A DNA stretch of 64,000 bases from assembly GCA_902626585.1 (NCBI GenBank), contig CACOGA010000004.1:1-64000 (forward strand), in the 5' to 3' direction. The stretch comes from an uncultured Bacteroidota bacterium (GTDB lineage Bacteria; Bacteroidota; Bacteroidia; Flavobacteriales; Flavobacteriaceae). The notes under the pieces were generated by a model. It was not told the origin of the DNA. It saw only the letters and a list, made by a program, of their open reading frames with translations, and searched no databases. Below are positions 10,457-22,640 of the stretch, piece by piece (the stretch's first letter is position 1; every line of letters starts with the position of its first letter). The translations under genes and the position numbers were made by a program.

Positions 10457-11305
10457 ATGTTTCACGTGGAACAAAACCAAATACATATTAGTGTTGTTGA
10501 TCATTTCTTTTCGAAAGAAAAGTTTGACATAGTTAAAACTAAAACTACAGGTCTACTTCAAACACATCCTGCTCCAACCAAAAAAGAAATGTATAAATAC
10601 TACAATTCAAAAAAATACATTTCACATAATTCAAAAAAAACAGGTGTTTTTTATTTTTTATATAGGATATTCAGAGATTTCAATTTTTGGTTTAAATATA
10701 GAGCTATAAGCGATAAAGAAAACTGTAGCGACATACTAGACTTTGGTTCAGGAGAGGAATACTTTAAAGAAAGATTGGAACAAAGAAACCACAAAGTTTG
10801 TGGTGTTGATCCATTTAAAACTAATAGATCAAAAGAAATTTTCGAATCCATTTTTAGTAAAGAGTTGGATGGCAAGATATTTAATTGTATTACAGCTTGG
10901 CACTCACTTGAGCATGTTCATGATTTAGATTTAGTGATTTCTCGTTTTTACCAACTATTGGATGAAAAAGGCACTGTAGTTGTTGCCGTCCCAAATTATC
11001 GTTCACTAGATGCAAAATACTACAAAGGTTTCTGGGCAGCTTACGATGCCCCAAGACACCTTTGGCATTTTGACAGACAATCTATAAAGCAAGTTTTTTA
11101 CAAAAATGGCTTTAACCTTGTTAAATCTAAACCTTTGTTTTTTGATGCCTACTATGTTTCTTTGCTTTCAGAAAAATATAGAAAATCTAAACTTTGGCTT
11201 TTTAATTCCTTGTTGCTTGGAACCCTATCAAACATTAATGCTGTTTTCACAAAACAATACTCATCCAACATTTTCATTTTCAAAAAAACTAAGACAAGTA
11301 CCTAA
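10457..11305 (+). CDS. Class I SAM-dependent methyltransferase
   Basis: A 282-residue protein with a methyltransferase_11/23-type core. Motif I is DILDFGSGEEYF (around residue 95), followed by an acidic post-I block GVDPFK and the motif AWHSLEHVHDL. The substrate is unknown. It may act on an isoprenoid, lipid or sugar, as the N-terminal region resembles envelope-associated flavobacterial homologues. It begins directly after the mnmG stop codon. Its first six codons (MFHVEQ) are the coding read-through of a parS site, so the N-terminus is probably dictated by that DNA element. It converges on the lipid kinase gene with a 17-base overlap. Confidence 0.85.
   Translation: MFHVEQNQIHISVVDHFFSKEKFDIVKTKTTGLLQTHPAPTKKEMYKYYNSKKYISHNSKKTGVFYFLYRIFRDFNFWFKYRAISDKENCSDILDFGSGEEYFKERLEQRNHKVCGVDPFKTNRSKEIFESIFSKELDGKIFNCITAWHSLEHVHDLDLVISRFYQLLDEKGTVVVAVPNYRSLDAKYYKGFWAAYDAPRHLWHFDRQSIKQVFYKNGFNLVKSKPLFFDAYYVSLLSEKYRKSKLWLFNSLLLGTLSNINAVFTKQYSSNIFIFKKTKTST
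10458..10473. promoter_or_regulatory. parS-like site 2 (ParB/Spo0J binding)
   Basis: TGTTTCACGTGGAACA matches the parS consensus TGTTTCACGTGAAACA at 15 of 16 positions. It lies inside the first codons of the methyltransferase gene, starting at the second base of the ATG. Site 1 also starts at the second base of an ATG. Confidence 0.85.
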
Positions 11306-12203
11306 ACCCTTTTTTAATTACAGAATAATCAATTTTACCTGCGCCAAAAATTTCACCATCGCCCTGACACAATAAAAGACCCCTTTTAGAGCTTATTTTT
11401 GCAGAAGAGTCTAGCAGTGTCAAAACTTTGCGTTCCTTAAAAATAGACCCATTAAAAAGATTAAAAAAATTTTTAACAACATCAAATTTGCTAAATTCCT
11501 GCGCTATCGTAATGTTTAGCAAGCCATCATTGCCAGCTGGACTTTTAATTAATTGCATGCCCCCGCCGGTAAATTTGCAAATTCCCACACCAAGTAAAAA
11601 TATTTTTGTTTCAATTTCATTCATGGAAGTTTTTATTTTTATCTCAATATTTTGATACCGTGCAAAATTCATAATTGCGCAAACCAAGTACGCTAGTTTT
11701 CCAAGCCATTTATAATTATGAATTCTTTTTAGCATGAAAGAGTCAAAACCAACACCGGAGTATGTAACAAAGTATCTCGTTTTCATTTCATTTCCGTTAA
11801 TAATTTTAGCCACACCAACATCTTGATCATTAATTGTTCCGTTAACCAACAAATCAATACTTTTTGAAATGTTTACTGGAATTTGTTTTGATCTTGCCCA
11901 GTCATTCCCAGTGCCTGATGGAATTAAACCAAAAAGTATTTCTTCTTTAGGAATGTTTTTCTGCAAAACTATTCCCGCTACAACCTTTTGAACAGTGCCA
12001 TCACCACCAATAGCCAACATCTTTTTATAGTTTGATCTTGTGGCTAGCTCCACTAAGCCGATCTCATCTCCAGATTTTCTTGTCAAGTTAAGCTTGTATT
12101 TTATCGACCTGCTATCAAGCATTTTCAAGACTAAGTCAATCAAGTCTTTTCCTTTGCCTGAGTTCGAAGCGGGGTTGGCTATAATAAACCAGCCATCAAA
12201 CAT
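11289..12203 (-). CDS. Diacylglycerol kinase-family lipid kinase (YegS/DgkB-like)
   Basis: A 304-residue soluble or peripheral lipid kinase of the DAGK catalytic family, likely phosphorylating diacylglycerol or another lipid. It carries the NPASNSGKG N-terminal block, the nucleotide-binding motif AIGGDGTVQKVV near residue 65 and PSGTGNDWARS near residue 101. The C-terminal beta-sandwich (TIAQEFSKFDVV, QGDGE) is intact. Its ATG lies within the last codons of the upstream delta' gene (8-base overlap), which implies translational coupling. Its 3' end overlaps the converging methyltransferase gene. Confidence 0.92.
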   Translation of the reverse strand: MFDGWFIIANPASNSGKGKDLIDLVLKMLDSRSIKYKLNLTRKSGDEIGLVELATRSNYKKMLAIGGDGTVQKVVAGIVLQKNIPKEEILFGLIPSGTGNDWARSKQIPVNISKSIDLLVNGTINDQDVGVAKIINGNEMKTRYFVTYSGVGFDSFMLKRIHNYKWLGKLAYLVCAIMNFARYQNIEIKIKTSMNEIETKIFLLGVGICKFTGGGMQLIKSPAGNDGLLNITIAQEFSKFDVVKNFFNLFNGSIFKERKVLTLLDSSAKISSKRGLLLCQGDGEIFGAGKIDYSVIKKGFRYLS

Positions 12204-13224
12204 TTTGAAATGGTTTTACATGAAGTAGTCTAGTAAGCTTTATAGAAATATCAAGAAAAATAATTTTTGGATTCCCGTTTCTTTCAATATCGTTAAAGCC
12301 TCCTTGAATTACATCGTAAAACTCCTCTATGTTTTCCTCATGTACATAGGGCGAAAACTTATCTAGCACTAAGCCGTTTGAGTAGTTTCCCGAGTTGTTA
12401 CGCGCCTTATAGCCGTAGAGTATAGAGTCCCTAAAAACAGTTGAGCAATAGCTTAAAAAGTCTTTTTGCTCTTCACGCGTTCTTTTGCTTATTTTTTCTG
12501 AAAAACTAATAAGTTCACTAATTGCAGATTTACTGCTTTTTACCTTAAAAGCAGCTCTTACCCACTCTAAGAATAATGTTTCATTTTCAGAATTAAAGCC
12601 TTGATTATCAATACTTTGGGGCTTGATATAAATTTTTTGACACCTTGAGGTTATTGTTGGCAAAAGCTTTCCCTCATCCTCACAAACCAGTATAAATACC
12701 GTGCTCTTTGGGGGCTCCTCCAAGAGCTTTAAGAGCTTATTTGATGCGCTTATATTCATTTTTTCGACCATCCAAATTAGAAATATTTTTAAACCACCTT
12801 CGTATGATTTTAACGACGCAAGTCTAGAGATTTCTTCTGCTTCATCTTTATTTATTGCTGCCTGTTTATTACCAAGCTCTATTTTATCGTACCAGCTAGT
12901 AAGGCTTATCTCTTTGTTGCTTATTACAAAATCTCTCCACTTCTCGACAAAGTCTTTTGAGCTTGCTTTTGTTCTAACGCCGCTAGTAGTGTTAACTGGA
13001 TAAAAGTAGTGCACATCTGGGTTTGTTAGCGTTTTTAATCTCTCAAGTGAAGCCTGTTGTTGGTGTATTTCCAAATTTGAATAGGGGCTTTTTATAATTG
13101 ACCTAATCAGATCTAACCCGGCCCCCAATACATTCGAACTGCTTTTACCGACCAGCAAATAGGTATTCGCAACCCTTCCGTTTTTAACCGATTGTTTTAC
13201 TGAATTTAACTGAATTTGCCCCAT
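12196..13224 (-). CDS. holB: DNA polymerase III delta' subunit
   Basis: Clamp-loader subunit that helps load the beta clamp for replication. The 342 residues keep the AAA+ fold landmarks: an MNISASNKLLKLLEEPP sensor/helix region and the SRC motif TITSRCQKIYI near residue 190. The Walker A position reads VGKSSSNVLGAG and lacks the GK(S/T) P-loop arrangement of ATPase subunits, as expected for a non-hydrolysing delta' subunit. A zinc-binding cysteine cluster is not obvious. A -7 box is found 16 bases upstream. It is divergent from pgk. Confidence 0.85.
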   Translation of the reverse strand: MGQIQLNSVKQSVKNGRVANTYLLVGKSSSNVLGAGLDLIRSIIKSPYSNLEIHQQQASLERLKTLTNPDVHYFYPVNTTSGVRTKASSKDFVEKWRDFVISNKEISLTSWYDKIELGNKQAAINKDEAEEISRLASLKSYEGGLKIFLIWMVEKMNISASNKLLKLLEEPPKSTVFILVCEDEGKLLPTITSRCQKIYIKPQSIDNQGFNSENETLFLEWVRAAFKVKSSKSAISELISFSEKISKRTREEQKDFLSYCSTVFRDSILYGYKARNNSGNYSNGLVLDKFSPYVHEENIEEFYDVIQGGFNDIERNGNPKIIFLDISIKLTRLLHVKPFQNV

Positions 13225-13233
13225 TTAATTTGA

Positions 13234-13262
13234 TTGAAAACAAAGATAAAGAATTATATTTG
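13234..13262 (+). promoter_or_regulatory. Promoter of pgk (-33 TTG, -7 TATATTTG)
   Basis: TTG at 13234-13236 is followed after 18 bases by TATATTTG at 13255-13262, close to the Bacteroidota consensus TTG-N19-TAnnTTTG. The pgk ATG follows 11 bases after the -7 box. Confidence 0.65.
13241..13248 (-). promoter_or_regulatory. -7 promoter element of holB
   Basis: On the minus strand TATCTTTG fits TAnnTTTG and ends 16 bases before the holB ATG. It lies inside the spacer of the divergent pgk promoter, so the two promoters overlap. Confidence 0.6.
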
Positions 13263-13273
13263 ACACGTATCTT

Positions 13274-14461
13274 ATGTTCATGAAATCAATAAGTGAAATT
13301 TCTTTTTCTGGAAAAAAAGTCTTGATTAGGACTGACTTTAATGTACCGATTAATGAATTAGGCGAAATCAGTGATAACTCAAGAATAGTAGCCTCATTAC
13401 CAACAATCAAGCACGTATTATCATCTGGCGGGTCGTGTATTCTGGCGTCACATATGGGCAGGCCTAAGGGAAATAATGAAGAACTTTCATTAGCAAGATT
13501 AATTCCCGAGCTAAATAGACTGATTGATGCTGATGTGGTTTTCTTAGCAGATTGTATTGGACCCCACACTAAAGAGGTGTGTTTAAATTTAACCCCAGGG
13601 AAGGTTGTACTTTTAGAAAACCTGCGGTTCTACAAAGAGGAAATCTTAGCAGACTTCAATTTCGCTAAAGAACTCGCTAGCCTTGCAGATGTATATATTA
13701 ATGATGCGTATGGAACAACTCATAGAGAGCATGCCTCAACAGTAACAATTGCTCAATTTTTTAACGAGAAGTGCGCTGGAATGCTCTTGGAAAAGGAAAT
13801 AAATAGTTTAAAAAAATTGATGGACAAACCAAAAAAACCAGTTACTGCTATAATTGGTGGAGCCAAGGTTTCATCCAAAATAAGTGTCATTATAAATATT
13901 TTAGACTTTGTGGATAACCTAATTATTGGAGGCGGTATGGCTTATACATTTGTTAAACACAATGGTGGTAGAATCGGGGATTCAATATTTGAAAAAGACA
14001 GACTTAAAGATTGTAGCAATATTTTATTTCACGCAAACAAAAAAAATGTAAAGCTCTTTTTGCCAGACGACACAGTTGTGTCCGATCAATTCTCGGAAAA
14101 AAGCATTAAAAAAATAGTTGATATAAACGAGGTTCCAGATGGTTGGCTGGGCCTAGATATTGGCCCTAGAACTATTGAAAAATTTGAAAGAGTAATCAAA
14201 AATAGCAGAACTGTTTTGTGGAATGGGCCTATGGGTGTTTTCGAAATGTCATCCTATGAGAAAGGAACCTCATCGATTGCAAAATCAGTTGCTCAAGCAA
14301 CGATTAATGGAGCTTTTTCATTAGTTGGAGGAGGAGATTCTGTTGCAGCAATTAAGAAGTTCAATCTTGAAAACGATGTCAGCTTTATCAGTACTGGAGG
14401 AGGAGCCATGCTTGAAAGCCTTGAGGGGAAAGCCCTTCCAGGAATTAAAGCACTAATGTAA
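13274..14461 (+). CDS. pgk: Phosphoglycerate kinase
   Basis: Glycolytic/gluconeogenic enzyme that interconverts 1,3-bisphosphoglycerate and 3-phosphoglycerate with ADP/ATP. The 395 residues match family length. The N-terminal substrate site VLIRTDFNVPIN, the HMGRPKG block, the NDAYGTTHREHAS block, the nucleotide-site WNGPMGVFE and the C-terminal GGGDSVAA are all present. Two start codons are possible (13274 or 13280); both give the same core. The lytic transglycosylase gene follows after 7 bases and probably shares the transcript. Confidence 0.97.
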   Translation: MFMKSISEISFSGKKVLIRTDFNVPINELGEISDNSRIVASLPTIKHVLSSGGSCILASHMGRPKGNNEELSLARLIPELNRLIDADVVFLADCIGPHTKEVCLNLTPGKVVLLENLRFYKEEILADFNFAKELASLADVYINDAYGTTHREHASTVTIAQFFNEKCAGMLLEKEINSLKKLMDKPKKPVTAIIGGAKVSSKISVIINILDFVDNLIIGGGMAYTFVKHNGGRIGDSIFEKDRLKDCSNILFHANKKNVKLFLPDDTVVSDQFSEKSIKKIVDINEVPDGWLGLDIGPRTIEKFERVIKNSRTVLWNGPMGVFEMSSYEKGTSSIAKSVAQATINGAFSLVGGGDSVAAIKKFNLENDVSFISTGGGAMLESLEGKALPGIKALM

Positions 14462-14468
14462 AATAAAC

Positions 14469-15614
14469 ATGAAAATCGCTCAACTTGCTTTAATTATATT
14501 TTTGCTTTTTATTTCCTCTGCATTCTCTCAGACAGACAATAACATAGAATTAGTTTTACAGTCAAATTTTAATTCTGATACAATCAAAAACAGGCTTGAA
14601 AGATTAAATGCTAAAACTCCAATTGAACTGTTCTTTACCCCCAGTGTTGAAAAAACCATAAAGAGATATTTAAAAACGCGAATAGAGTTTTACAGGAATA
14701 ATATTGATAAGATCAGCTTTTATTTACCTCTGTTTGAAGAGCATTTGCAGAACAAACAAATTCCGAAGGAAATTAAATATTTGCCGATTATTGAATCACG
14801 ACTTGATCCCTCCGCTATTTCTAGGGTAGGCGCCACAGGCTTGTGGCAATTTATGTTTTACACAGCGCTTGAAAATGGCTTGACTATGAACAGCTATATT
14901 GATGAAAGGATGGACCCACAGAAGTCAACAGTTGCAGCAGCATTATATCTGAGCAAACTTTATGAAATACATAATGATTGGAATCTTGTTTTAGCCTCCT
15001 ACAATGCAGGACCGAGAACAATTTCTAGAGCCAAAACAAAATCAGGTGGCTATACTAATTACTGGAATATGAGGCCTTTTCTTCCTTCCGAAACAGCAAA
15101 CTACATCCCATCATTTATTGCAACGATGTATATACTTGAGTATTCAAAGGAACATGGGATAGATTTGGACAAGAGCGAAAAACCAATACTTAAAACAGAG
15201 AAAATTATTGTAAAAGAGAAAATAGCCTTTGAGCATATTTCATATTTTTTTAATTATTCCAAAGATTCAATAAAAAGCTTAAACCCATCATATATCCACA
15301 ATATTATCCCCGCTGACGGCAAAAATAAATTAAGGCTTCCAATTGATCTTGTTGATAGGTTTGTTATGCAAGAAGAAGATTTTTACAGTTTTGCAAAAGC
15401 TGAATTCGAAAAAAGAGAAAAGCCTTTACCAGACTTATACTCCATTGACTCAAAGCTAATATATAAGGTTAAGTACGGGGAGTTCCTCGGGAAGATTGCC
15501 AGAAAATTTGGTATAAAAGTCTCAGATTTAAAGCGATGGAACAACTTAAAAAGCGACAATATTAGGGAAAATCAAAAGCTTATAATTTTTCCTAAACGAA
15601 TACCCAAAAATTAA
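14469..15614 (+). CDS. Membrane-bound lytic transglycosylase (MltD-like) with LysM domain
   Basis: Periplasmic peptidoglycan-cleaving enzyme. It has a signal peptide (residues 1-20, ending SSAFSQ) and a GH23/SLT domain with catalytic glutamate in LPIIESRLDPSAIS. The block VGATGLWQFM and the later VLASYNAGPR follow. One C-terminal LysM domain (about residues 333-378, IYKVKYGEFLGKIARKFG) binds glycan. MltD of E. coli has two LysM domains; one is seen here. No lipobox cysteine is present, so it is probably soluble periplasmic. It converges with the S74 gene, two bases apart. Confidence 0.92.
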   Translation: MKIAQLALIIFLLFISSAFSQTDNNIELVLQSNFNSDTIKNRLERLNAKTPIELFFTPSVEKTIKRYLKTRIEFYRNNIDKISFYLPLFEEHLQNKQIPKEIKYLPIIESRLDPSAISRVGATGLWQFMFYTALENGLTMNSYIDERMDPQKSTVAAALYLSKLYEIHNDWNLVLASYNAGPRTISRAKTKSGGYTNYWNMRPFLPSETANYIPSFIATMYILEYSKEHGIDLDKSEKPILKTEKIIVKEKIAFEHISYFFNYSKDSIKSLNPSYIHNIIPADGKNKLRLPIDLVDRFVMQEEDFYSFAKAEFEKREKPLPDLYSIDSKLIYKVKYGEFLGKIARKFGIKVSDLKRWNNLKSDNIRENQKLIIFPKRIPKN

Positions 15615-15616
15615 AA

Positions 15617-16633
15617 CTATTTATCTCTTTTCATGAGTTTTTGAACCATTGCCTTTAGCTCAATTACTTCTTTTTGGTAATTATCTATTTTCCCTTGTTG
15701 TTCTTTCATCGCATTGATAAGTACAGGAATTAGCCCCTGATAGTTCACCGCTAAAATTTCACTTTCATTTTTACTTACAAGTTCAGGAAAAACCCCCTGA
15801 ATTTCTTGTGCAAGTAAACCTATCTTTTGCTTTCCTTTAAGCTCATATGACTTACCGTCTAGTTGTAATAGTTTAGTCAGTGTAGAACCGAGAGATTCGA
15901 TGTTTGACTTTAGTCTCTCATCAGATTGAACCTCAACATCTCCTGCTACAGTTAAGTCATTACTAATTGTAGCATCTCCGTTAAACATCACTTTGAAAGC
16001 ATCTGATAAATTTCCTGACGTTCCATTTCCGATTACAAATGCTGTATTTGATGTACTAAACGATGTGGCACTATTTGTAACTGATGAGCCTGAAGAATTG
16101 TACTGTCCTATCACTGTGGAGCCATAATCACTTGCTGTTGTGCTTCTCCCTGTTGCTGTAGAAACGCTACCGCTTGCCGTTGTACTTATTCCCATTGCCG
16201 TGGAATTATTTCCGTTCGCCGTTGTGCTTAATCCCATAGCGATAGAACTACTTCCACTTGCTGTTGTGGCATATCCCATAGCTGTAGAAACCTCACCACT
16301 TGCTAAAGTATTTGCTCCCATTGCAGTTGAGTTGTTTCCACCCGCTATTGTTTGATTCCCCATAGCTGTAGAACCGTCTCCACTTGCAGTTGTGTTTACC
16401 CCCATTGATGTGGAGGTGCTTCCGCTTGCTGTAGTTACATACCCCATAGCTGTACAATAACTTTCACTCGCTGTTGTTTGATATCCCAAAGCTGTTGAAT
16501 AATTTCCACTGGCCGTTGTTTGATATCCCAAAGCTGAAGAATATGTGCCCGAATTATTTGTCTCGTTTGTGCTTATTTGCGCATTCATAGTAAATGTGCT
16601 GATTAATGTTAAAAGCGTAAATAGTTTATTCAT
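15617..16633 (-). CDS. Secreted YadA-head-repeat protein with C-terminal S74 intramolecular chaperone
   Basis: A 338-residue protein with a signal peptide (residues 1-18, ending FTMNAQ). Ten tandem 14-residue repeats of form TTASGxxSTAMGxx (residues 39-178) are typical of trimeric YadA/Hia-type head beta-rolls. A linker and a peptidase_S74 domain (residues about 237-338) follow. The S74 start SDERLK places Ser237 and Lys242 five residues apart, the same spacing as the catalytic Ser-Lys pair of phage tailspike chaperones, so self-cleavage before Ser237 is likely after trimer folding. There is no YadA membrane anchor. No phage genes are nearby, so this looks like a cell-surface fibre rather than a prophage tail. 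Confidence 0.88.
   Translation of the reverse strand: MNKLFTLLTLISTFTMNAQISTNETNNSGTYSSALGYQTTASGNYSTALGYQTTASESYCTAMGYVTTASGSTSTSMGVNTTASGDGSTAMGNQTIAGGNNSTAMGANTLASGEVSTAMGYATTASGSSSIAMGLSTTANGNNSTAMGISTTASGSVSTATGRSTTASDYGSTVIGQYNSSGSSVTNSATSFSTSNTAFVIGNGTSGNLSDAFKVMFNGDATISNDLTVAGDVEVQSDERLKSNIESLGSTLTKLLQLDGKSYELKGKQKIGLLAQEIQGVFPELVSKNESEILAVNYQGLIPVLINAMKEQQGKIDNYQKEVIELKAMVQKLMKRDK
16100..16519 (-). repeat. Ten tandem 42-bp coding repeats (14-residue YadA-head units)
   Basis: Ten diverged 42-base units encode TTASGxxSTAMGxx repeats. Adjacent units are the most alike, for example those around 16480-16519. There are no spacers, so this is not a CRISPR array. Such repeats can change number by slippage. 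Confidence 0.9.
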
Positions 16634-16717
16634 CTCGAATTATTTTTAAGTTAAGATAGTAAGTTGTTTAGTATTCATCACAAAACAAATTGACAAAAAT
16701 TCTTGTAAATTGTATGC

Positions 16718-17665
16718 ATGAAAAAAATTACAATTATATACTTTGTTTTAGTATTTACATTGTCTTGCTCTGAAAGTCAACAAGGACTTCTGCCCTCGTC
16801 AAATGGAAACATTAACAATGTGTCTGTAGTCATAAATGAAGAACTTTGGGATGGAAAAGTAGGTGAGGTTATCAGAGAAAATTTTGGCAGGCCAATTTAT
16901 GGGCTTCCTCAAATAGAGCCAGTTTTCTCTCTTAGCCATATTCCAAGTAGAATATTTACTGGCTTTGCTACAAAATCAAGAACAATTTTAAAGATTGATA
17001 TTTCAGAAACAGAAGGTGTTTTTAATTTCAAAAACACATATGCAACACCCCAAAGAATCATTCAGATTACAGGAAAAACCCCAGAGAATATTATTTCGAA
17101 TATTAACAAAAACATTAATTCAATTTACTCAGCATTATATTTGAACGAAATTCAGGAAAAGCAGAGAAGAATTTCAAAAAACTTAAATCAAACAGAATCT
17201 GTTAAAAAAAGCACTGGCTTGACACTACGGTTTCCTTCTGCCTACCGAGTTGCAAAAGTTGACAGTAACTTTGTTTGGATAAGAAAGGATATAGAAACGG
17301 GTTCCGTTAATCTTTTTGTGTCCAGATATAATGATGAATACAGAAGAAAAGTTATTCAAATAAGAGATTCACTTTCCAAGAGGTATATTCCTGGACCAAT
17401 AGAAGGCTCCTTTATGTCAACAGACTTAATTTATGAACCAAACATAGAGGAGATTAATATTCGTGGCAAGCAATTATTGGAAACAAGAGGGCTTTGGGAA
17501 ATACCAGGGCAATTCATGGCTGGCCCTTTCTTAAACTATCTTTTAAAAATAGACAATGAAAAGGACGAGTACATAATGTTGGATGGCTTTGTATATTCGC
17601 CAGGATCTAATAAAAGAGATTATGTGTTTGAGCTTGAGGCTATAATGAGGAGCTTGAAGTATTAG
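16718..17665 (+). CDS. DUF4837 family lipoprotein
   Basis: A 315-residue predicted lipoprotein with lipobox VFTLSC near residue 17. The mature part begins with LPSSNGNINNVSVVINEELW and contains YGLPQIEPVFSLSHIP. These match my memory of DUF4837, a Bacteroidota-specific family of unknown function with two beta-rich halves. Position in the cell envelope is inferred from the lipobox. The gene ends with TTAG shared with the converging tatA gene, a 4-base overlap. Confidence 0.78.
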   Translation: MKKITIIYFVLVFTLSCSESQQGLLPSSNGNINNVSVVINEELWDGKVGEVIRENFGRPIYGLPQIEPVFSLSHIPSRIFTGFATKSRTILKIDISETEGVFNFKNTYATPQRIIQITGKTPENIISNINKNINSIYSALYLNEIQEKQRRISKNLNQTESVKKSTGLTLRFPSAYRVAKVDSNFVWIRKDIETGSVNLFVSRYNDEYRRKVIQIRDSLSKRYIPGPIEGSFMSTDLIYEPNIEEINIRGKQLLETRGLWEIPGQFMAGPFLNYLLKIDNEKDEYIMLDGFVYSPGSNKRDYVFELEAIMRSLKY

Positions 17666-17862
17666 TTTTCTTCTTTTTCTTCATTTTCATCGCCTTCCTC
17701 CAAAGCTTTTTTAAATTCCTTTACCCCCTTACCCGTTCCTTTAACTAGGTTCCCTAACTTTTTACCTAAACCAACAGGCCCGAACACTATTAGAGCAACA
17801 ACTACAATGACCACAATTTGAAAAGGTCCAATTGTAAACAGAGGCGCTATAAATAAATACAT
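17662..17862 (-). CDS. tatA: Twin-arginine translocase subunit TatA/TatE
   Basis: A 66-residue protein forming the pore component of Tat export of folded proteins. One N-terminal membrane helix (IGPFQIVVIVVVALIVFGP) is followed by the FGP hinge, an amphipathic helix rich in Gly/Lys (LGKKLGNLVKGTGKGVKEFKKAL as separate blocks) and an acidic tail of Glu/Asp/Asn. The usual FGPxKLPE is replaced by FGPVGLGKK. TatC is not in the window. No exact -7 box was found upstream. Confidence 0.88.
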   Translation of the reverse strand: MYLFIAPLFTIGPFQIVVIVVVALIVFGPVGLGKKLGNLVKGTGKGVKEFKKALEEGDENEEKEEN

Positions 17863-17950
17863 AGATTGATATTTTTAAGCTAAGTTAATAATAATACATG
17901 TAATAGTCGCTATATCAACTGTTAGTATTAAAGAGTAAGTTAATTTTGAG

Positions 17951-17958
17951 TATTTTTG
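17951..17958 (+). promoter_or_regulatory. -7 promoter element of the M23 peptidase operon
   Basis: TATTTTTG fits TAnnTTTG and ends six bases before a GTG at 17965. It overlaps an in-frame TTG at 17956, which rules out that longer start. Confidence 0.55.
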
Positions 17959-17964
17959 AATATT

Positions 17965-18831
17965 GTGAAAAATAAAGATCAAAACAAAGGATTTCTAAGA
18001 AGACTTTTAAATGATTACAAAGTCGTTATTTCAAGTGAAGATACTTTTGAGGAGAAGGCTTCATTTAGGATGAGTAAAATAAGTGCATTTTTATTGGCGC
18101 TAGCTTATTCCGCAATACTGATTTTATTTACAATTAGCGTTGTTTTCTTTACCCAACTTAGAGAGTTAGTTCCAGGCTATTCTTCATCAGAATTGTTAAA
18201 TAGAGCCATTTATCTTACAAAAAAGACAGACTCATTGGAAAAGCAAATTGCCCTAAATAATAAGTTTTACAAATCCATAGAAGATGTTCTTTCTGGAAAT
18301 ACCGAAGACTTAATTCCTAGAGAAAACCTCTCTATTGACAGCAATTTGGTTGACAACGGAAGCATTGATATTTATCCCAACTCTGAGGACTCAATATTAA
18401 GGCTATATGTTGAAAATCAGGATAAATTTAATCTAACTAAAAATGAGTTAGTAATAGAAAATAAAATGTTCTATTCTCCAATTAAAGGAGAAATAACACA
18501 GAATTTTAATTTTAAAGAAAACCATTTTGCAATTGATATAGCAGCAGATGTCGGTACGCCAGTGAAAGCAGTTCTTGAGGGAAAAATAATTTTTTCTGAA
18601 TGGTCATTGGAAACAGGTTATGTTATGATAATTGATCACGGAGAAAATATCATTTCAGTATATAAGCACAACTCAAAAAATTTAAAAGAGCAAAATGAGT
18701 TTGTACAGGCTGGAGAAATTATTGCCTACTCTGGAAATCAGGGAAATCTAAGTACAGGCCCACACTTACATTTTGAACTTTGGAAAAATGGTACTCCGAT
18801 AAACCCAGAGCCATTATTAAATTTTAACTAA
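17965..18831 (+). CDS. M23 (LytM) metallopeptidase, membrane-anchored
   Basis: A peptidoglycan-endopeptidase-type protein of 288 residues from the GTG at 17965. A short cytoplasmic N-terminus, one membrane helix (about residues 42-62) and a coiled segment precede the C-terminal LytM domain. The zinc ligands are all present: HFAID (HxxxD), a YKHN block and GPHLHFELW (HxH). It is therefore likely a catalytically active cell-wall hydrolase, unlike the degenerate LytM protein at 44730. The GH3-like gene begins two bases after its stop codon. Confidence 0.9.
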   Translation: MKNKDQNKGFLRRLLNDYKVVISSEDTFEEKASFRMSKISAFLLALAYSAILILFTISVVFFTQLRELVPGYSSSELLNRAIYLTKKTDSLEKQIALNNKFYKSIEDVLSGNTEDLIPRENLSIDSNLVDNGSIDIYPNSEDSILRLYVENQDKFNLTKNELVIENKMFYSPIKGEITQNFNFKENHFAIDIAADVGTPVKAVLEGKIIFSEWSLETGYVMIIDHGENIISVYKHNSKNLKEQNEFVQAGEIIAYSGNQGNLSTGPHLHFELWKNGTPINPEPLLNFN

Positions 18832-18833
18832 GA

Positions 18834-20336
18834 ATGCTAAAGCATGCACTATTAAAAGTAATAGCGAAGTTTGCTCAAAAGCAAATTTATGGTTGGGCAA
18901 ATAAACCGATTCAAACACAAGAAAAACAGCTTAGTTTTTTGATTAAGCACGCACAAAAAACACAGTTTGGGAAAGATCACAGTTTTTCTGAAATATCAAA
19001 TTATGAAGAGTTTAGAAACAAGGTTCCCATTAGAGATTATGAGGGGCTCCGGCAATACTTTGAGAAAATAAAATCTGGTAAGGAAAACATATTATGGCCA
19101 GGAAAACCTCTTTATCTAGCGCTAACCTCAGGAACAACCTCAGGATCGAAATATATTCCTATTACCAAGGAAAGTTTACCAAATCATTTAAATGGAGCAA
19201 AGAATGCTCTTTTGATGTACGTAGCAGAAACAGGCAAAACAGACTTTATTGACGGAAAGTTCATTTTTATTCAAGGTAGCCCAAACCTAACTAAAATTTC
19301 TGGGATTCTTAGTGGTAGACTTTCAGGAATTTCAGCTCATCACGTGCCTTCATATATGAAAAAAAACATGCTTCCAACATGGGAAACTAATACAATTGAG
19401 GATTGGGAAAACAAGGTAAAAAGTATTGTTCGTGAAACTGAAAATGAAAACATGACTATTATCAGTGGTATTCCATCATGGCTACAAATGTATTTTGAAA
19501 AAATAGTGGAGAAAACAAAAATGCAAGTTTCAGATGTTTTCCCCAATTTTGAACTTCTAATTCATGGGGGAGTAAATTTTGATCCATACAAGAAAAAATT
19601 TGAATCCCTGATTGGAAAGGTAGTTGATAGCATCGAGCTTTTTCCAGCTAGTGAAGGTTTTTTTGCTTTTCAAGACAGGCAAGAACAGAAAGATCTTCTT
19701 TTAATTCTCAACGCAGGAATCTTTTACGAGTTTATTGACGCAGAGGATTTTAGAAATAATAATTTTGACAGAGTATCACTCAAAAGTGTCCAAAAAGATA
19801 AAAATTATGTTATGATTATTTCTAGCTCTGCAGGACTATGGGGATATAATACCGGGGATACGGTAAGGTTTACATGTTTAAAACCATATAAAATTAACGT
19901 AACCGGTAGAATCAAGCAAAGCTTGTCTGCATTTGGCGAACATGTAATAGTCAAGGAGGTTGAACAAGCAATGGAGCGGGCAATTTCTCATACCAATACT
20001 TTGGTTATGGAATTTACTGTAGCCCCAAGATTTAAATCAGAATTATTACATGCTTGTCATGAGTGGTTCATAGAATTTGACAGCACTTTAGCAGATATTA
20101 GTAGTTTTGGAAACTTACTAGACAGAGAGCTGCAAAATCAAAACAAGTACTATAGAGATTTAATCGAAGGAAATATTATCGGAAAACCAGTGATAACAAA
20201 AGTTAAAAAAGGAGGCTTCAAAAAATATATGACAAGTATAGGTAAATTAGGAGGACAAAATAAAATTCCAAAAATAGCAAACGATAGAAAAATAGCAAAC
20301 GGGTTAAAAAAACTTAATCTTATCTATAGTGACTAA
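18834..20336 (+). CDS. GH3-family acyl-adenylating enzyme
   Basis: A 500-residue member of the GH3 (auxin-responsive promoter) family, which belongs to the ANL adenylating superfamily and in plants conjugates acyl acids to amino acids. The ATP-binding P-loop-like motif is LTSGTTSGSKYIPIT near residue 98. The block LFPASEGFFAFQ near residue 268 and the GDTVRFT block near residue 342 also fit. The bacterial substrate is unknown. It is translationally adjacent to the M23 gene and about 45 bases before the polysaccharide genes, so envelope modification is a reasonable guess only. Confidence 0.82.
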   Translation: MLKHALLKVIAKFAQKQIYGWANKPIQTQEKQLSFLIKHAQKTQFGKDHSFSEISNYEEFRNKVPIRDYEGLRQYFEKIKSGKENILWPGKPLYLALTSGTTSGSKYIPITKESLPNHLNGAKNALLMYVAETGKTDFIDGKFIFIQGSPNLTKISGILSGRLSGISAHHVPSYMKKNMLPTWETNTIEDWENKVKSIVRETENENMTIISGIPSWLQMYFEKIVEKTKMQVSDVFPNFELLIHGGVNFDPYKKKFESLIGKVVDSIELFPASEGFFAFQDRQEQKDLLLILNAGIFYEFIDAEDFRNNNFDRVSLKSVQKDKNYVMIISSSAGLWGYNTGDTVRFTCLKPYKINVTGRIKQSLSAFGEHVIVKEVEQAMERAISHTNTLVMEFTVAPRFKSELLHACHEWFIEFDSTLADISSFGNLLDRELQNQNKYYRDLIEGNIIGKPVITKVKKGGFKKYMTSIGKLGGQNKIPKIANDRKIANGLKKLNLIYSD

Positions 20337-20381
20337 AATAATTTATTAAATAATCCGTTTAAAAATAACCAAAACAAACAA

Positions 20382-21356
20382 ATGAAAAACAATTTAAAAG
20401 AAAATGATGAGCTAGACATAATAGTCCTGATTGAAAAAATAAAGCTTGCCCTGTTAAGCATTTTACTACAAATATTTAGGAGTACAAAAACATTCTTAAT
20501 GGGCTGGAAGCAACTTCTGTTAATCGTACTGGCGGGAGTTTTATTGGGGTATTTTCAAACCGATAATGATCAGCCAAATGCCAAAGAAGCCACCTTGCTT
20601 GTTAAAATTAATTTTGATGCTGGAAATTATGTTTATGACGCAGTAGATTTAATTAATCTAAAAATCCTCAGTGAAGATACTGAGTTTTTCACTCAAGAAT
20701 TTAAGCTAAACGCGGACGAACAGTTGGATGAAGTTTCGATTTCACCCGTTATTGATATTAAAGATATCATGGCTAAAGAAATAAATGCGAATGAGATAAG
20801 AGCTTTATTCGAAAATCTAGAGTATGAAGACGGCTTTTCTGTTACTGAAGGTTTCAAATCAGATTATGATTATCATTTTATTAATGTAGTTGTTTCAGGA
20901 AATTCAACAATCAGCACGGTCAATAAAATTGTTGATTATTTTAATAACAATCCGTTGTTTACTGAGCTGAAAGAAAGAAATATACAAAGAATTTCAAGTA
21001 TAATTTCTGACAATGAGCAAACAATAAAGCAAATCGATAAATTACTGGATTATTATACCAATGAGAATAAAACAAAAACGACACAACTTTACATTGACAA
21101 CAAGGATTTACGCCCTAATGAATTAATCAAAACAAAAGTTTCCTTGCAAAATGAAAATCAAGAATTAAAAAAAGAAAATCTAACAACAAAAGAGACAGTA
21201 ATGGCCATAAATGAGGCAAATATATTAATCGAAAATACATCTCTATTATCAAATAAAATGGTTTACTACCCATTACTGTTTTTATTTATTTATATTGTTT
21301 TTTCTGTATTGATTGGCCTTTACTCATATCTAGATAAATTAGACAGAGCTAGCTAA
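20382..21356 (+). CDS. Wzz-like chain-length/co-polymerase protein (tentative)
   Basis: A 324-residue protein with two membrane helices, near residues 43-60 and 297-317, flanking a periplasmic domain that ends in a coiled coil (ISDNEQTIKQIDKLLDYY). This is the topology of polysaccharide co-polymerases. I do not recognise the periplasmic sequence, and no conserved proline-rich second-helix motif stands out, so the family call rests on topology and position. It is the first gene of the polysaccharide block, and the flippase gene begins directly after its stop codon. Confidence 0.55.
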   Translation: MKNNLKENDELDIIVLIEKIKLALLSILLQIFRSTKTFLMGWKQLLLIVLAGVLLGYFQTDNDQPNAKEATLLVKINFDAGNYVYDAVDLINLKILSEDTEFFTQEFKLNADEQLDEVSISPVIDIKDIMAKEINANEIRALFENLEYEDGFSVTEGFKSDYDYHFINVVVSGNSTISTVNKIVDYFNNNPLFTELKERNIQRISSIISDNEQTIKQIDKLLDYYTNENKTKTTQLYIDNKDLRPNELIKTKVSLQNENQELKKENLTTKETVMAINEANILIENTSLLSNKMVYYPLLFLFIYIVFSVLIGLYSYLDKLDRAS

Positions 21357-22640
21357 ATGTCAATTAAAGATCTTACACAAAAGAGTTTTTCTGTTTTAAT
21401 CATCAGGTCTTTTGGGGTTTTACTTTTATTTGGTTTTACTCTATTCATTACCAATTTCTTTACACCTGAAAATGTTGGTAGGTATGATTTTGTGAGATCC
21501 ACAATAATGGTGCTCGGTGGGCTTGCCTTGATGGGCACAAACCAATCTATTATTTATTACTCAGGTCTTTTAAAGGCAAGAAAAAGTGTTGAGTCAATAA
21601 GAATAATATATTTCAAAATGTTACGTATAATTTTTGCTTTAAGTTTAATCATTTTGGGACTTTTTGTTGGCATATTTAATGAGGCAACCATATTACAAAT
21701 CTTTAAAAGCGAAGAGTCTTTTTCTCTGATTCTGAAATCAATATTTACTTTGATTTTTTTTTCCACCACTATGCTTAATATTGATACTATGCGCGCACTA
21801 GAAAAGACAATTCTTTCGGAAATGTATAGAAGCTTATTTAGATATCTTCCAGTGTTTGTGTTTGCAATTATTTTATTAAAAACTAACCGTCAATCTCTAC
21901 TAGTCGAAGCATATCTGTTAGGTTTTATCTTGCTTTCAATTTTTTCTTTTGTAAGGGTTTTCGCTTTGCTTTCAAAACTTGAAACACCCAGAGATGACTC
22001 GGAAAATTTTTCTGTAAAAGAAATATTCAAAACATCGGCACCAATGGCTCTTAGCGCCATAGCGTATTTCATTATGCAAAGCATAGATATTATTATCCTT
22101 TCTATATATGAAGGCTTTGATCAAATAGCATATTATTCCGTTTCTGTAAAACTAGCAATGGTTACAACCTTAGCCCTTATGTCGGTAAATATTGTCATTG
22201 CCCCACGAATTGCAGAAATATTTGAAAAGAAAAATATGCGTGAAATGCAACATCTAATTAAGCACTCAACTAGGATTATATTCCTTATTAGTACGTGTGT
22301 TTTAAGTGTTATGTTTCTATTTTCAGAAGAGATTTTAGGTATGTTTGGGCAAGCATATATACAGTCCAAAAAGGCCTTAATTTTTTTACTTATTGCTCAG
22401 TTTTTTAATTCTGTTTCGGGCCCTGGAGCAATATATTTAAATATGACTGGACGGCAAACAACACTTAATAAAATATTGGTTTTAGGACTTGTTATAAATA
22501 TTTCACTCAACTTTTATTTTATCCCTATTGAAGGCATTAATGGAGCTGCAAAAGCCACTCTTTTTAGCCTTATAATTTGGAATTCAATAACTACAGTATT
22601 TGTTTACTCGAGAGATAAAATAAAAATCTTTCTAACCTGA
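21357..22640 (+). CDS. Oligosaccharide flippase (Wzx-like, MOP superfamily)
   Basis: A 427-residue polytopic inner-membrane protein with about 12 hydrophobic helices. It starts SIKDLTQKSFSVLIIRSFGV and contains FFTPENVGRYDFVRS, the N-terminal pattern of polysaccharide-biosynthesis MOP flippases. It would move lipid-linked oligosaccharide repeat units across the inner membrane. A second flippase is at 42071. No gap separates it from the upstream gene and one base separates it from the sulfotransferase, so it is a tightly coupled operon member. Confidence 0.9.
   Translation: MSIKDLTQKSFSVLIIRSFGVLLLFGFTLFITNFFTPENVGRYDFVRSTIMVLGGLALMGTNQSIIYYSGLLKARKSVESIRIIYFKMLRIIFALSLIILGLFVGIFNEATILQIFKSEESFSLILKSIFTLIFFSTTMLNIDTMRALEKTILSEMYRSLFRYLPVFVFAIILLKTNRQSLLVEAYLLGFILLSIFSFVRVFALLSKLETPRDDSENFSVKEIFKTSAPMALSAIAYFIMQSIDIIILSIYEGFDQIAYYSVSVKLAMVTTLALMSVNIVIAPRIAEIFEKKNMREMQHLIKHSTRIIFLISTCVLSVMFLFSEEILGMFGQAYIQSKKALIFLLIAQFFNSVSGPGAIYLNMTGRQTTLNKILVLGLVINISLNFYFIPIEGINGAAKATLFSLIIWNSITTVFVYSRDKIKIFLT

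What the first reader, a model, noticed from the sequence alone, without database searches (positions are those of the whole stretch)
15617..16633. Self-trimming trimeric surface fibre: YadA head repeats plus S74 chaperone without membrane anchor
Ten 14-residue YadA-head repeats are joined to a peptidase_S74 domain with Ser237 and Lys242 in catalytic spacing. Phage tailspikes use this domain to fold trimers and then cut it off. Here it has a signal peptide and chromosomal neighbours that are not phage. The mature product would be a short trimeric beta-roll fibre with no obvious anchor, so attachment and export route (general secretion, then how across the outer membrane) are open questions.
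Basis: partly seen in the sequence, partly recalled or inferred. Interest (0 to 1): 0.55.

Follow-up and report, generated by a model that had tools for sequence, protein, structure and literature searches.

The report
Self-trimming surface fibre, secretion-linked family
A marine bacterium carries a gene for a short three-stranded surface fibre that probably cuts off its own folding helper, and related fibre genes often sit side by side with cargo of the type IX secretion system, which suggests how such fibres might reach the cell surface.

Summary
Window 15617-16633(-) encodes 338 aa: a non-lipoprotein signal peptide, YadA-head repeats in a 14-residue register (11 motifs, 10 full periods), a neck, and a Peptidase_S74 domain with Ser237 and Lys242 in the catalytic S-x4-K spacing, ending in a coil. 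No YadA anchor, lipobox or type IX (T9SS) sorting domain is present. Near neighbours are cellular, not phage structural, genes. The gene is under purifying selection, and the S/K pair is intact in every homologue examined that covers it. Cleavage itself is inferred, not shown.

This family is a different mosaic: constant S74 end, variable N-terminal head. Two findings go further. (1) Among the 78 closest loci in named genomes, S74 fibre genes are often operonic with T9SS cargo genes (28 of 52 tight neighbours against 16 of 406 controls), with a 4-bp overlap in 8 genomes: a candidate export or anchoring partner. The window's own gene lacks such a neighbour. (2) In the genus, fibre genes come and go at several chromosomal sites, and many S74 modules (less clearly the window's) look exchanged between loci and species.

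The parts
15617..16633 (-). complete gene of the YadA-head/S74 fibre (P0001, 338 aa)
16580..16633 (-). signal peptide, residues 1-18 (cleavage before Gln19 inferred); no lipobox Cys
   Evidence: sequence; 0 of 77 complete distinct S74 proteins has a lipobox and 62 of 77 pass a first crude signal-peptide rule; by a second crude rule 71 of 77 pass, against 0 of 70 complete viral S74 proteins and 229 of 666 control ORFs
16106..16552 (-). YadA-head beta-roll, residues 28-176, 14-aa register
   Evidence: Pfam; register; AlphaFold2 block pLDDT 86-96 for residues 31-150
15926..16105 (-). neck/spacer, residues 177-236 (conserved AFVIGNGT...SDAFKVMFNGD segment)
   Evidence: alignment A2 of 10 sequences
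15776..15925 (-). Peptidase_S74 (intramolecular chaperone/autoprotease), residues 237-286
   Evidence: fold match to MyRF ICA 7dc3, E=6.6e-5
15923..15925 (-). codon of Ser237, predicted nucleophile; cleavage predicted just before it
   Evidence: invariant in A1 and; solved chain 3gud begins at the equivalent Ser
15908..15910 (-). codon of Lys242, second residue of the dyad
   Evidence: invariant
15623..15742 (-). C-terminal helix, residues 298-337 (the equivalent helix trimerises MyRF)
   Evidence: models; MyRF from passages of PMC8326128
14469..15614 (+). flanking MltD-like SLT+LysM gene; its stop lies 2 bp from the fibre gene's stop (convergent)
16718..17665 (+). flanking DUF4837 gene; 10-48 bp from MltD in 9 relatives without the fibre gene

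Best explanation
This is a Sec-exported bacterial (not phage) trimeric fibre. After export, three chains meet through the C-terminal coil and the S74 domain (inferred). The S74 trimer registers and folds the neck and the YadA-type beta-roll head (inferred). The Ser237/Lys242 dyad then cuts before Ser237, freeing an approximately 218-residue head-neck trimer from an approximately 102-residue chaperone (inferred from homology; not shown). The head works as an exposed, variable adhesin or surface-recognition rod (inferred). The fibre has no anchor of its own. In this family the crossing of, or attachment to, the outer membrane is most likely helped by T9SS-delivered partner proteins, because sister fibre genes are operonic with T9SS cargo. 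For this particular gene the partner would have to act in trans. Confidence by step: self-cleaving S74 fibre about 0.8; extracellular or surface about 0.65; T9SS partnership about 0.4.
For: Domains. Dyad: S, D and K invariant in 20 of 20 diverse sequences of the order; S..K in 130 of 130 genome rows covering both sites (136 rows, 6 not covering; 114 distinct segments, some genes present twice) and in 102 of 102 viral rows; 9 of 9 S74 proteins examined in a distant family. The collection searches used patterns away from the dyad. Fold: S74-alone model with mean pLDDT 86 matches MyRF ICA 7dc3 (prob 1.00) and chaperone 3gw6 (prob 0.97, E=0.025); a profile matches six solved sequences, among them 6f45, 7dc3 and 3gud. 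Purifying selection: dN/dS 0.06-0.24 in 8 comparisons, the lowest with saturated dS. Non-phage: 0 of 941 matching phage records cover 80% of the protein and all are below 60% identity; signal-peptide rule 71 of 77 bacterial against 0 of 70 viral. T9SS: SprA_N present; 25 sorting-domain hits in the genome, 24 over the cut-off. Tight neighbours of S74 genes carry a sorting domain in 28 of 52 cases against 16 of 406; clusters at 50% identity 15 of 31 against 12 of 241; per-locus sign test 25 to 3 with 14 ties.
Against: No direct evidence of cleavage, trimer or location. The window's gene has no T9SS gene next to it. No ~230-aa dedicated partner was found in this incomplete genome: of its 8 matches three are listed, two covering only the sorting domain and one at 26% identity. 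Of 92 S74 genes in the 78 loci, 64 show no tight sorting-domain neighbour and 39 have no tight same-strand neighbour at all, some because contigs end. The 78 loci are the best-scoring part of 447 relatives. The refined sorting-domain profile was seeded partly with S74-neighbouring genes. The ~510-aa partner type is a generic T9SS module that also occurs in large proteins away from S74. The head model gave no PDB fold match at E<=0.001 (best 7o23, E=0.62). The S74 part was mostly below pLDDT 50 in the full-length monomer model.
Confidence: 0.7

Rival explanations
1. Prophage tail-fibre remnant: a phage fibre gene left in the chromosome.
Against: Signal peptide present, as in 71 of 77 bacterial but 0 of 70 viral complete S74 proteins. 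Seven neighbours have cellular Pfam domains, one of them DUF4837. Among 10 neighbours the informative PHROG hits are shared enzyme domains such as SLT, M23 and clamp loader, plus some families of unknown function. Closest relatives found (up to 83% identity) are on bacterial contigs of the same genus. dN/dS is low.
Confidence: 0.06
2. S74 acts only as a trimerisation chaperone and is not cut; the uncleaved C-terminal coil holds the fibre on the cell.
For: No cleavage data exist here; a C-terminal coil is present in all ten close homologues aligned.
Against: Ser and Lys are invariant (130 of 130 covering genome rows); the Bdellovibrio MAT Bd3182 cleaves and its S782A form does not (PMC10769870, passages); MyRF S587A and K592A are not cleaved (PMC8326128, passages).
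Confidence: 0.15
3. Periplasmic protein: the trimer folds and stays in the periplasm.
For: Sec signal only; no sorting domain, lipobox or anchor found in the protein.
Against: Adhesin-type head of variable sequence and repeat number; operons with T9SS cargo in sister loci; MAT fibres were detected on the outside of the cell (PMC10769870, section 9).
Confidence: 0.15
4. Released fibre: the mature head is shed into the medium or vesicles rather than kept on the cell.
For: No anchor; cleavage would separate head from chaperone.
Against: No positive evidence; the short N-terminus before the head is similar in close homologues and could be an attachment peptide.
Confidence: 0.25

Closest known systems
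Mosaic adhesive trimer (MAT) proteins of Bdellovibrio bacteriovorus, S74 subgroup (Bd3182)
   Same: Chromosomal, signal peptide, trimeric fibre, C-terminal S74 with SDxxxK, self-cleavage at Ser shown for Bd3182, multigene family, surface display (PMC10769870: abstract, sections 9 and 16, passages).
   Different: All 21 MATs share an approximately 130-aa beta-rich domain after the signal peptide, are typically about 1,000 aa, and vary at the C-terminal tip. Here the head starts about 10 residues after the signal peptide, the C-terminal S74 is the constant part and the N-terminal head varies; many sister genes are tied to T9SS cargo.
Phage tailspike/fibre S74 proteins (endosialidase chaperone 3gw6, long tail fibre 6f45, neck appendage 3gud, L-shaped fibre 8hqz)
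   Same: S74 intramolecular chaperone; sequence and fold matches.
   Different: No signal peptide by my rule (0 of 70 complete viral S74 proteins); part of virions; different N-terminal parts.
Trimeric autotransporter adhesins (YadA, BpaC; type Vc secretion) and CbpF
   Same: YadA-head beta-roll repeats (phmmer to BpaC 7o23 E=1.5e-24 and CbpF 9u93 E=6.7e-13).
   Different: No YadA_anchor beta-barrel in the protein or the incomplete genome; S74 at the C-terminus instead.
MyRF ICA domain of a eukaryotic transcription factor
   Same: Best fold match of the S74 model (7dc3); same Ser/Lys spacing.
   Different: Intracellular membrane-tethered transcription factor.
eCIS tail fibres with an S74 fold (e.g. 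Microscilla marina)
   Same: S74 fold in a Bacteroidota fibre (PMC12923769, passages; that Microscilla is a Bacteroidota genus is recalled).
   Different: Injection-system fibres; this protein has a signal peptide. I did not search the genome for an eCIS.

Membership tests
Peptidase_S74 / ICA (intramolecular chaperone autoprotease) | S74 domain above family cut-off | tested here: met
   49.1 bits against cut-off 22; fold match 7dc3
Peptidase_S74 / ICA (intramolecular chaperone autoprotease) | Ser-x4-Lys catalytic dyad at the domain start | tested here: met
   S237/K242; invariant
Peptidase_S74 / ICA (intramolecular chaperone autoprotease) | autocleavage before the Ser | not testable with these tools
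   needs expression
Peptidase_S74 / ICA (intramolecular chaperone autoprotease) | trimer | not testable with these tools
   only monomer modelling available
Trimeric autotransporter adhesin (type Vc) | YadA-head repeats | tested here: met
Trimeric autotransporter adhesin (type Vc) | C-terminal YadA_anchor barrel | tested here: not met
   no Pfam match in the protein; none in the 87%-complete genome
Bdellovibrio MAT superfamily | signal peptide plus fibre ending in S74 or another tip | tested here: met
   (signal peptide by crude rule; trimer inferred)
Bdellovibrio MAT superfamily | conserved ~130-aa beta-rich domain directly after the signal peptide | tested here: not met
   head repeats begin at residue 28; judged by length, no MAT N-domain model was run
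T9SS cargo | C-terminal sorting domain (Por_Secre_tail) | tested here: not met
   no Pfam match in the protein; 0 of 135 S74 proteins of the set, fragments and duplicates included, match my profile at the C-terminus
Phage tail fibre | encoded among virion genes | tested here: not met
   20 ORFs of the contig put to PHROGs, the rest not scanned

The most novel reading that the evidence does not exclude
Marine Flavobacteriaceae run a T9SS-linked, self-cleaving fibre system: S74 fibres without any sorting signal are coupled, often by a 4-bp gene overlap, to T9SS cargo proteins (a small ~230-aa type that looks dedicated, a ~510-aa type and a rarer ~205-aa type) that carry or pin the trimer at the surface in trans. 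The S74 module is passed between loci and species, so that new heads can be displayed: a bacterial counterpart of phage tail-fibre switching. The window's gene would be a free-standing, older copy using a shared partner.
Probability: 0.3. Interest if true: 0.75.

Novelty: new variant of a known kind. Interest (0 to 1): 0.5.

Why it matters
If right, it gives a second, unrelated bacterial lineage that uses the phage folding-and-trimming domain for its own surface, with the mosaic built the other way round from Bdellovibrio. It also turns 'how do anchorless S74 fibres cross the outer membrane?' into a direct test: delete the adjacent T9SS gene or the T9SS core in a cultured relative and look for the fibre. 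It would add passengers without their own sorting signal to what the T9SS may handle.

Tried and rejected
Prophage origin: disfavoured. Type Vc anchor: not found. Sorting domain inside S74 proteins: 0 of 135. A small ORF next to DUF4837 in G001 as a fibre remnant: it is a different 86-aa ORF. 'Head-only' genes in relatives as true S74-less proteins: in G001, G004, G008 and G016 they stop at contig ends (contig lengths), so they are assembly breaks; in G003 site C (123 aa) and in L249 the truncation or frameshift lies inside the contig. Full-length structure model: head good, S74 poor; repeated for the S74 part alone. Head fold search gave no significant hit. The first sorting-domain profile (5 seeds) missed some ~205-aa and ~230-aa partners; I rebuilt it with seven more sequences, all taken from genes beside or near S74 genes, which favours adjacent genes. 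The first version, free of that, already gave 26 of 134 against 18 of 508 (p=9e-9). Module exchange: codon bias of a highly expressed gene was not excluded, the close species pair G016/G008 shows no excess, and the window's own module shows it less clearly.

Literature, seen as search listings unless said otherwise: searches listed no title or abstract start on S74 fibres with T9SS or on YadA-head/S74 proteins of Bacteroidota. Searches (5,056 papers, 25 listed; 86, 15 listed; 17, 15 listed) were not listed in full. Two papers holding both 'S74' and 'type IX secretion' were not opened. The top paper concerns polinton-like viruses of protists (not opened). Most subscription papers are not held.

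Full report
The gene. Window 15617-16633(-) encodes a 338-aa protein. Pfam finds YadA_head (5.9e-26) and Peptidase_S74 (7.2e-13, residues 237-286) and nothing else at E<=1. The head has an exact 14-residue register, with motifs at residues 32 to 172. The first 18 residues are a signal peptide of signal peptidase I type by inspection, with Gln at +1 and no lipobox. The C-terminal coil follows S74 directly. The genome (1.49 Mb in 35 contigs, about 87% complete) has two further S74 genes, one cut by a contig end, and no YadA_anchor match.

Is it a working gene? Against four homologues in other species, dN/dS is 0.06-0.24 for head and S74 (8 comparisons; dS is high and in part saturated, so the lowest values are uncertain). 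The Ser and Lys of the dyad are invariant: 20 of 20 in a deliberately diverse alignment; 130 of 130 rows that cover both sites in the genome set (136 rows, 6 not covering; 114 distinct segments, some genes present twice); 102 of 102 viral rows; and 9 of 9 S74 proteins examined in a distant family of the order. The collection searches used patterns elsewhere in the domain, so for those loci this is not an artefact of retrieval.

Fold. Modelled alone on a 65-sequence alignment, the S74 part reaches mean pLDDT 86. Its best PDB matches are the MyRF ICA domain (7dc3, E=6.6e-5) and the intramolecular chaperone 3gw6 (probability 0.97, E=0.025). A sequence profile matches six solved sequences, among them a long tail fibre subunit, MyRF and a neck appendage protein, whose solved chain begins at the equivalent Ser. 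The YadA head is supported by sequence (BpaC 7o23, phmmer 1.5e-24) and modelled with high confidence, but Foldseek gave no significant structural hit for that model.

Not a phage gene, as far as tested. Seven neighbours put to Pfam have cellular domains, one of them of unknown function (DUF4837). Ten neighbours (window 10457-22640) put to PHROGs matched shared enzyme domains, unknown families or nothing. Ten further ORFs about 52-62 kb downstream gave two strong and one weak match to families of unknown function, one insignificant match to a virion family (E=0.007) and six blanks. The remaining contig was not scanned. In 50,697 phage records, 941 match but none covers 80% of the protein and all are below 60% identity. 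By one crude rule, signal peptides occur in 71 of 77 complete distinct bacterial S74 proteins, 0 of 70 viral ones and 229 of 666 other ORFs; another rule gave 62 of 77.

Presence and absence. One search covered 13 genomes of the genus; 12 (own included) have the flanking DUF4837 gene. The S74 gene is beside it in 2: G000, and G008, whose contig ends inside the S74 gene. In 9, MltD and DUF4837 are 10-48 bp apart; in G001 an unrelated 86-aa ORF lies between them. G016, examined separately, also has an S74 gene there, with small ORFs between it and DUF4837. Sister genes occupy at least four other sites, which I call B, C, D and E. The window protein's best relative (83% identity) is at site B of G016, so genes are gained, lost or moved between sites. 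Decayed copies occur: G007 at site B keeps a 54-residue start with a stop, and G011 has a copy with an in-frame stop.

Constant end, variable head. Between the site-B genes of G016 and G008, dN is 0.11 in the head and 0.019 in the S74 part, and the number of head repeats differs among close homologues.

Exchange of the S74 module. Between G016 and G003, four-fold degenerate sites are 45% identical in 18 flanking genes (n=1372; four partner or fibre families left out) but 69-92% in 9 pairs of S74 cores, including cores at different sites (34-37 sites each). Several other pairs of more distant species (such as G016/G012, G008/G012, G004/G003) give similar contrasts. The close pair G016/G008 shows no excess (flanks 81%, cores 69-86%). 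Some cores are not near-identical to the rest: G013_1, G011_F, G020 and the site-E type share only about 56-79% DNA identity with most others. The coil after the core follows the site, not the core: G016 and G008 at site B share one coil, G012 and G003 at site D another. This fits recombination of the middle module. The window's own module shows it less clearly: 50-68% with G016 against 52% in flanks, 60-67% against 45% with G008, 58-63% against 37% with G012. Codon bias of a highly expressed gene is not excluded.

The T9SS link. One search found 447 relatives in named genomes and kept the best 80 (78 loci, 92 S74 genes). Same-strand neighbours within 60 bp carry a C-terminal T9SS sorting domain in 28 of 52 cases, against 16 of 406 members of other tight pairs in the same loci (Fisher p=1.6e-19; loci are not independent). 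Collapsed at 50% identity it is 15 of 31 against 12 of 241 (p=1.5e-9), and by locus 25 to 3 with 14 ties (p=2.7e-5). The profile behind these counts was seeded partly with S74 neighbours; an earlier profile built only from the window genome's own sorting domains gave 26 of 134 against 18 of 508 (p=9e-9). Two kinds of partner recur: about 510-520 aa directly downstream; and about 230 aa directly upstream, overlapping the fibre's start by 4 bp in 8 loci of 8 different genomes (L254, L257, L264, L265, L266, L271, L284, L287). A third, about 205 aa, lies downstream in L251 and L253 and about 440 bp away in L263. Pfam confirms Por_Secre_tail above the cut-off in 6 of the 7 partners tested (the seventh, in G024, scored 16.1 against 27) and in the 522-aa partner. 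The ~230-aa type looks dedicated: of 7 full-length copies in the genus, 3 lie beside an S74 gene, and the other 4 lie 42-49 bp from a contig end, where the remaining bases open an ORF starting MKKITLLF (2), MKKTILLF or MKKLILLF, like the fibre signal peptides. The ~510-aa type is a generic module also found in large proteins. Three loci (L218, L268, L280) also contain a headless 170-175-aa S74 protein. The window genome has SprA_N and 25 sorting-domain hits, 24 over the cut-off. Its paralogue on contig 24 is followed 11 bp away by the ~510-aa partner, cut by the contig end. The window gene itself stands alone.

Comparison with what is known. The Bdellovibrio MAT family (abstract, sections 9 and 16, and passages of PMC10769870) already has signal-peptide-bearing S74 fibres with SDxxxK; Bd3182 cleaves and its Ser-to-Ala form does not, and the tagged members tested were seen on the surface. 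The present protein works like them but lacks their shared ~130-aa N-terminal domain, and has the mosaic reversed. It is not a type Vc autotransporter, as the anchor is absent. I therefore call it a new variant of a known kind.

What is shown and what is inferred. Shown: sequence architecture, dyad conservation, selection, chromosomal setting, operon statistics. Inferred: trimer, cleavage, surface location, adhesive role, help from T9SS.

Noticed in passing
A large fibre repertoire reminiscent of the Bdellovibrio MAT set.
   Followed up: partly
L082:6680-9982(+): A 1,100-aa protein joining a SASA (sialic acid-specific acetylesterase family) domain to YadA heads and S74: an apparent trimeric enzyme fibre in a bacterium, like phage tailspike enzymes.
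   Followed up: no
L218:901-1413, L268:827-1339, L280:7342-7869: Headless S74 proteins of 170-175 aa with a signal peptide, lying after a fibre gene and before another fibre or a T9SS cargo gene.
   Followed up: no
L079, between 4613 and 5871: In G016 the gap between the fibre gene and DUF4837 holds small ORFs and three near-repeats (CATAGGCATATCTTC...), possibly traces of repeated insertion (seen by eye).
   Followed up: no
L102 8307-18484 (contig 4, about 68-78 kb in window coordinates): A run of mostly small ORFs, many without relatives in the loci compared, two matching PHROG families of unknown function strongly (5e-65, 4e-28): a possible genomic island about 52 kb from the fibre gene.
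   Followed up: partly
L067:7581-8135(-): In G013 a 184-aa signal-peptide protein follows a P0001-like fibre gene by 12 bp; a relative (family f44) lies at L102:16062-16625 of the window's contig.
   Followed up: no
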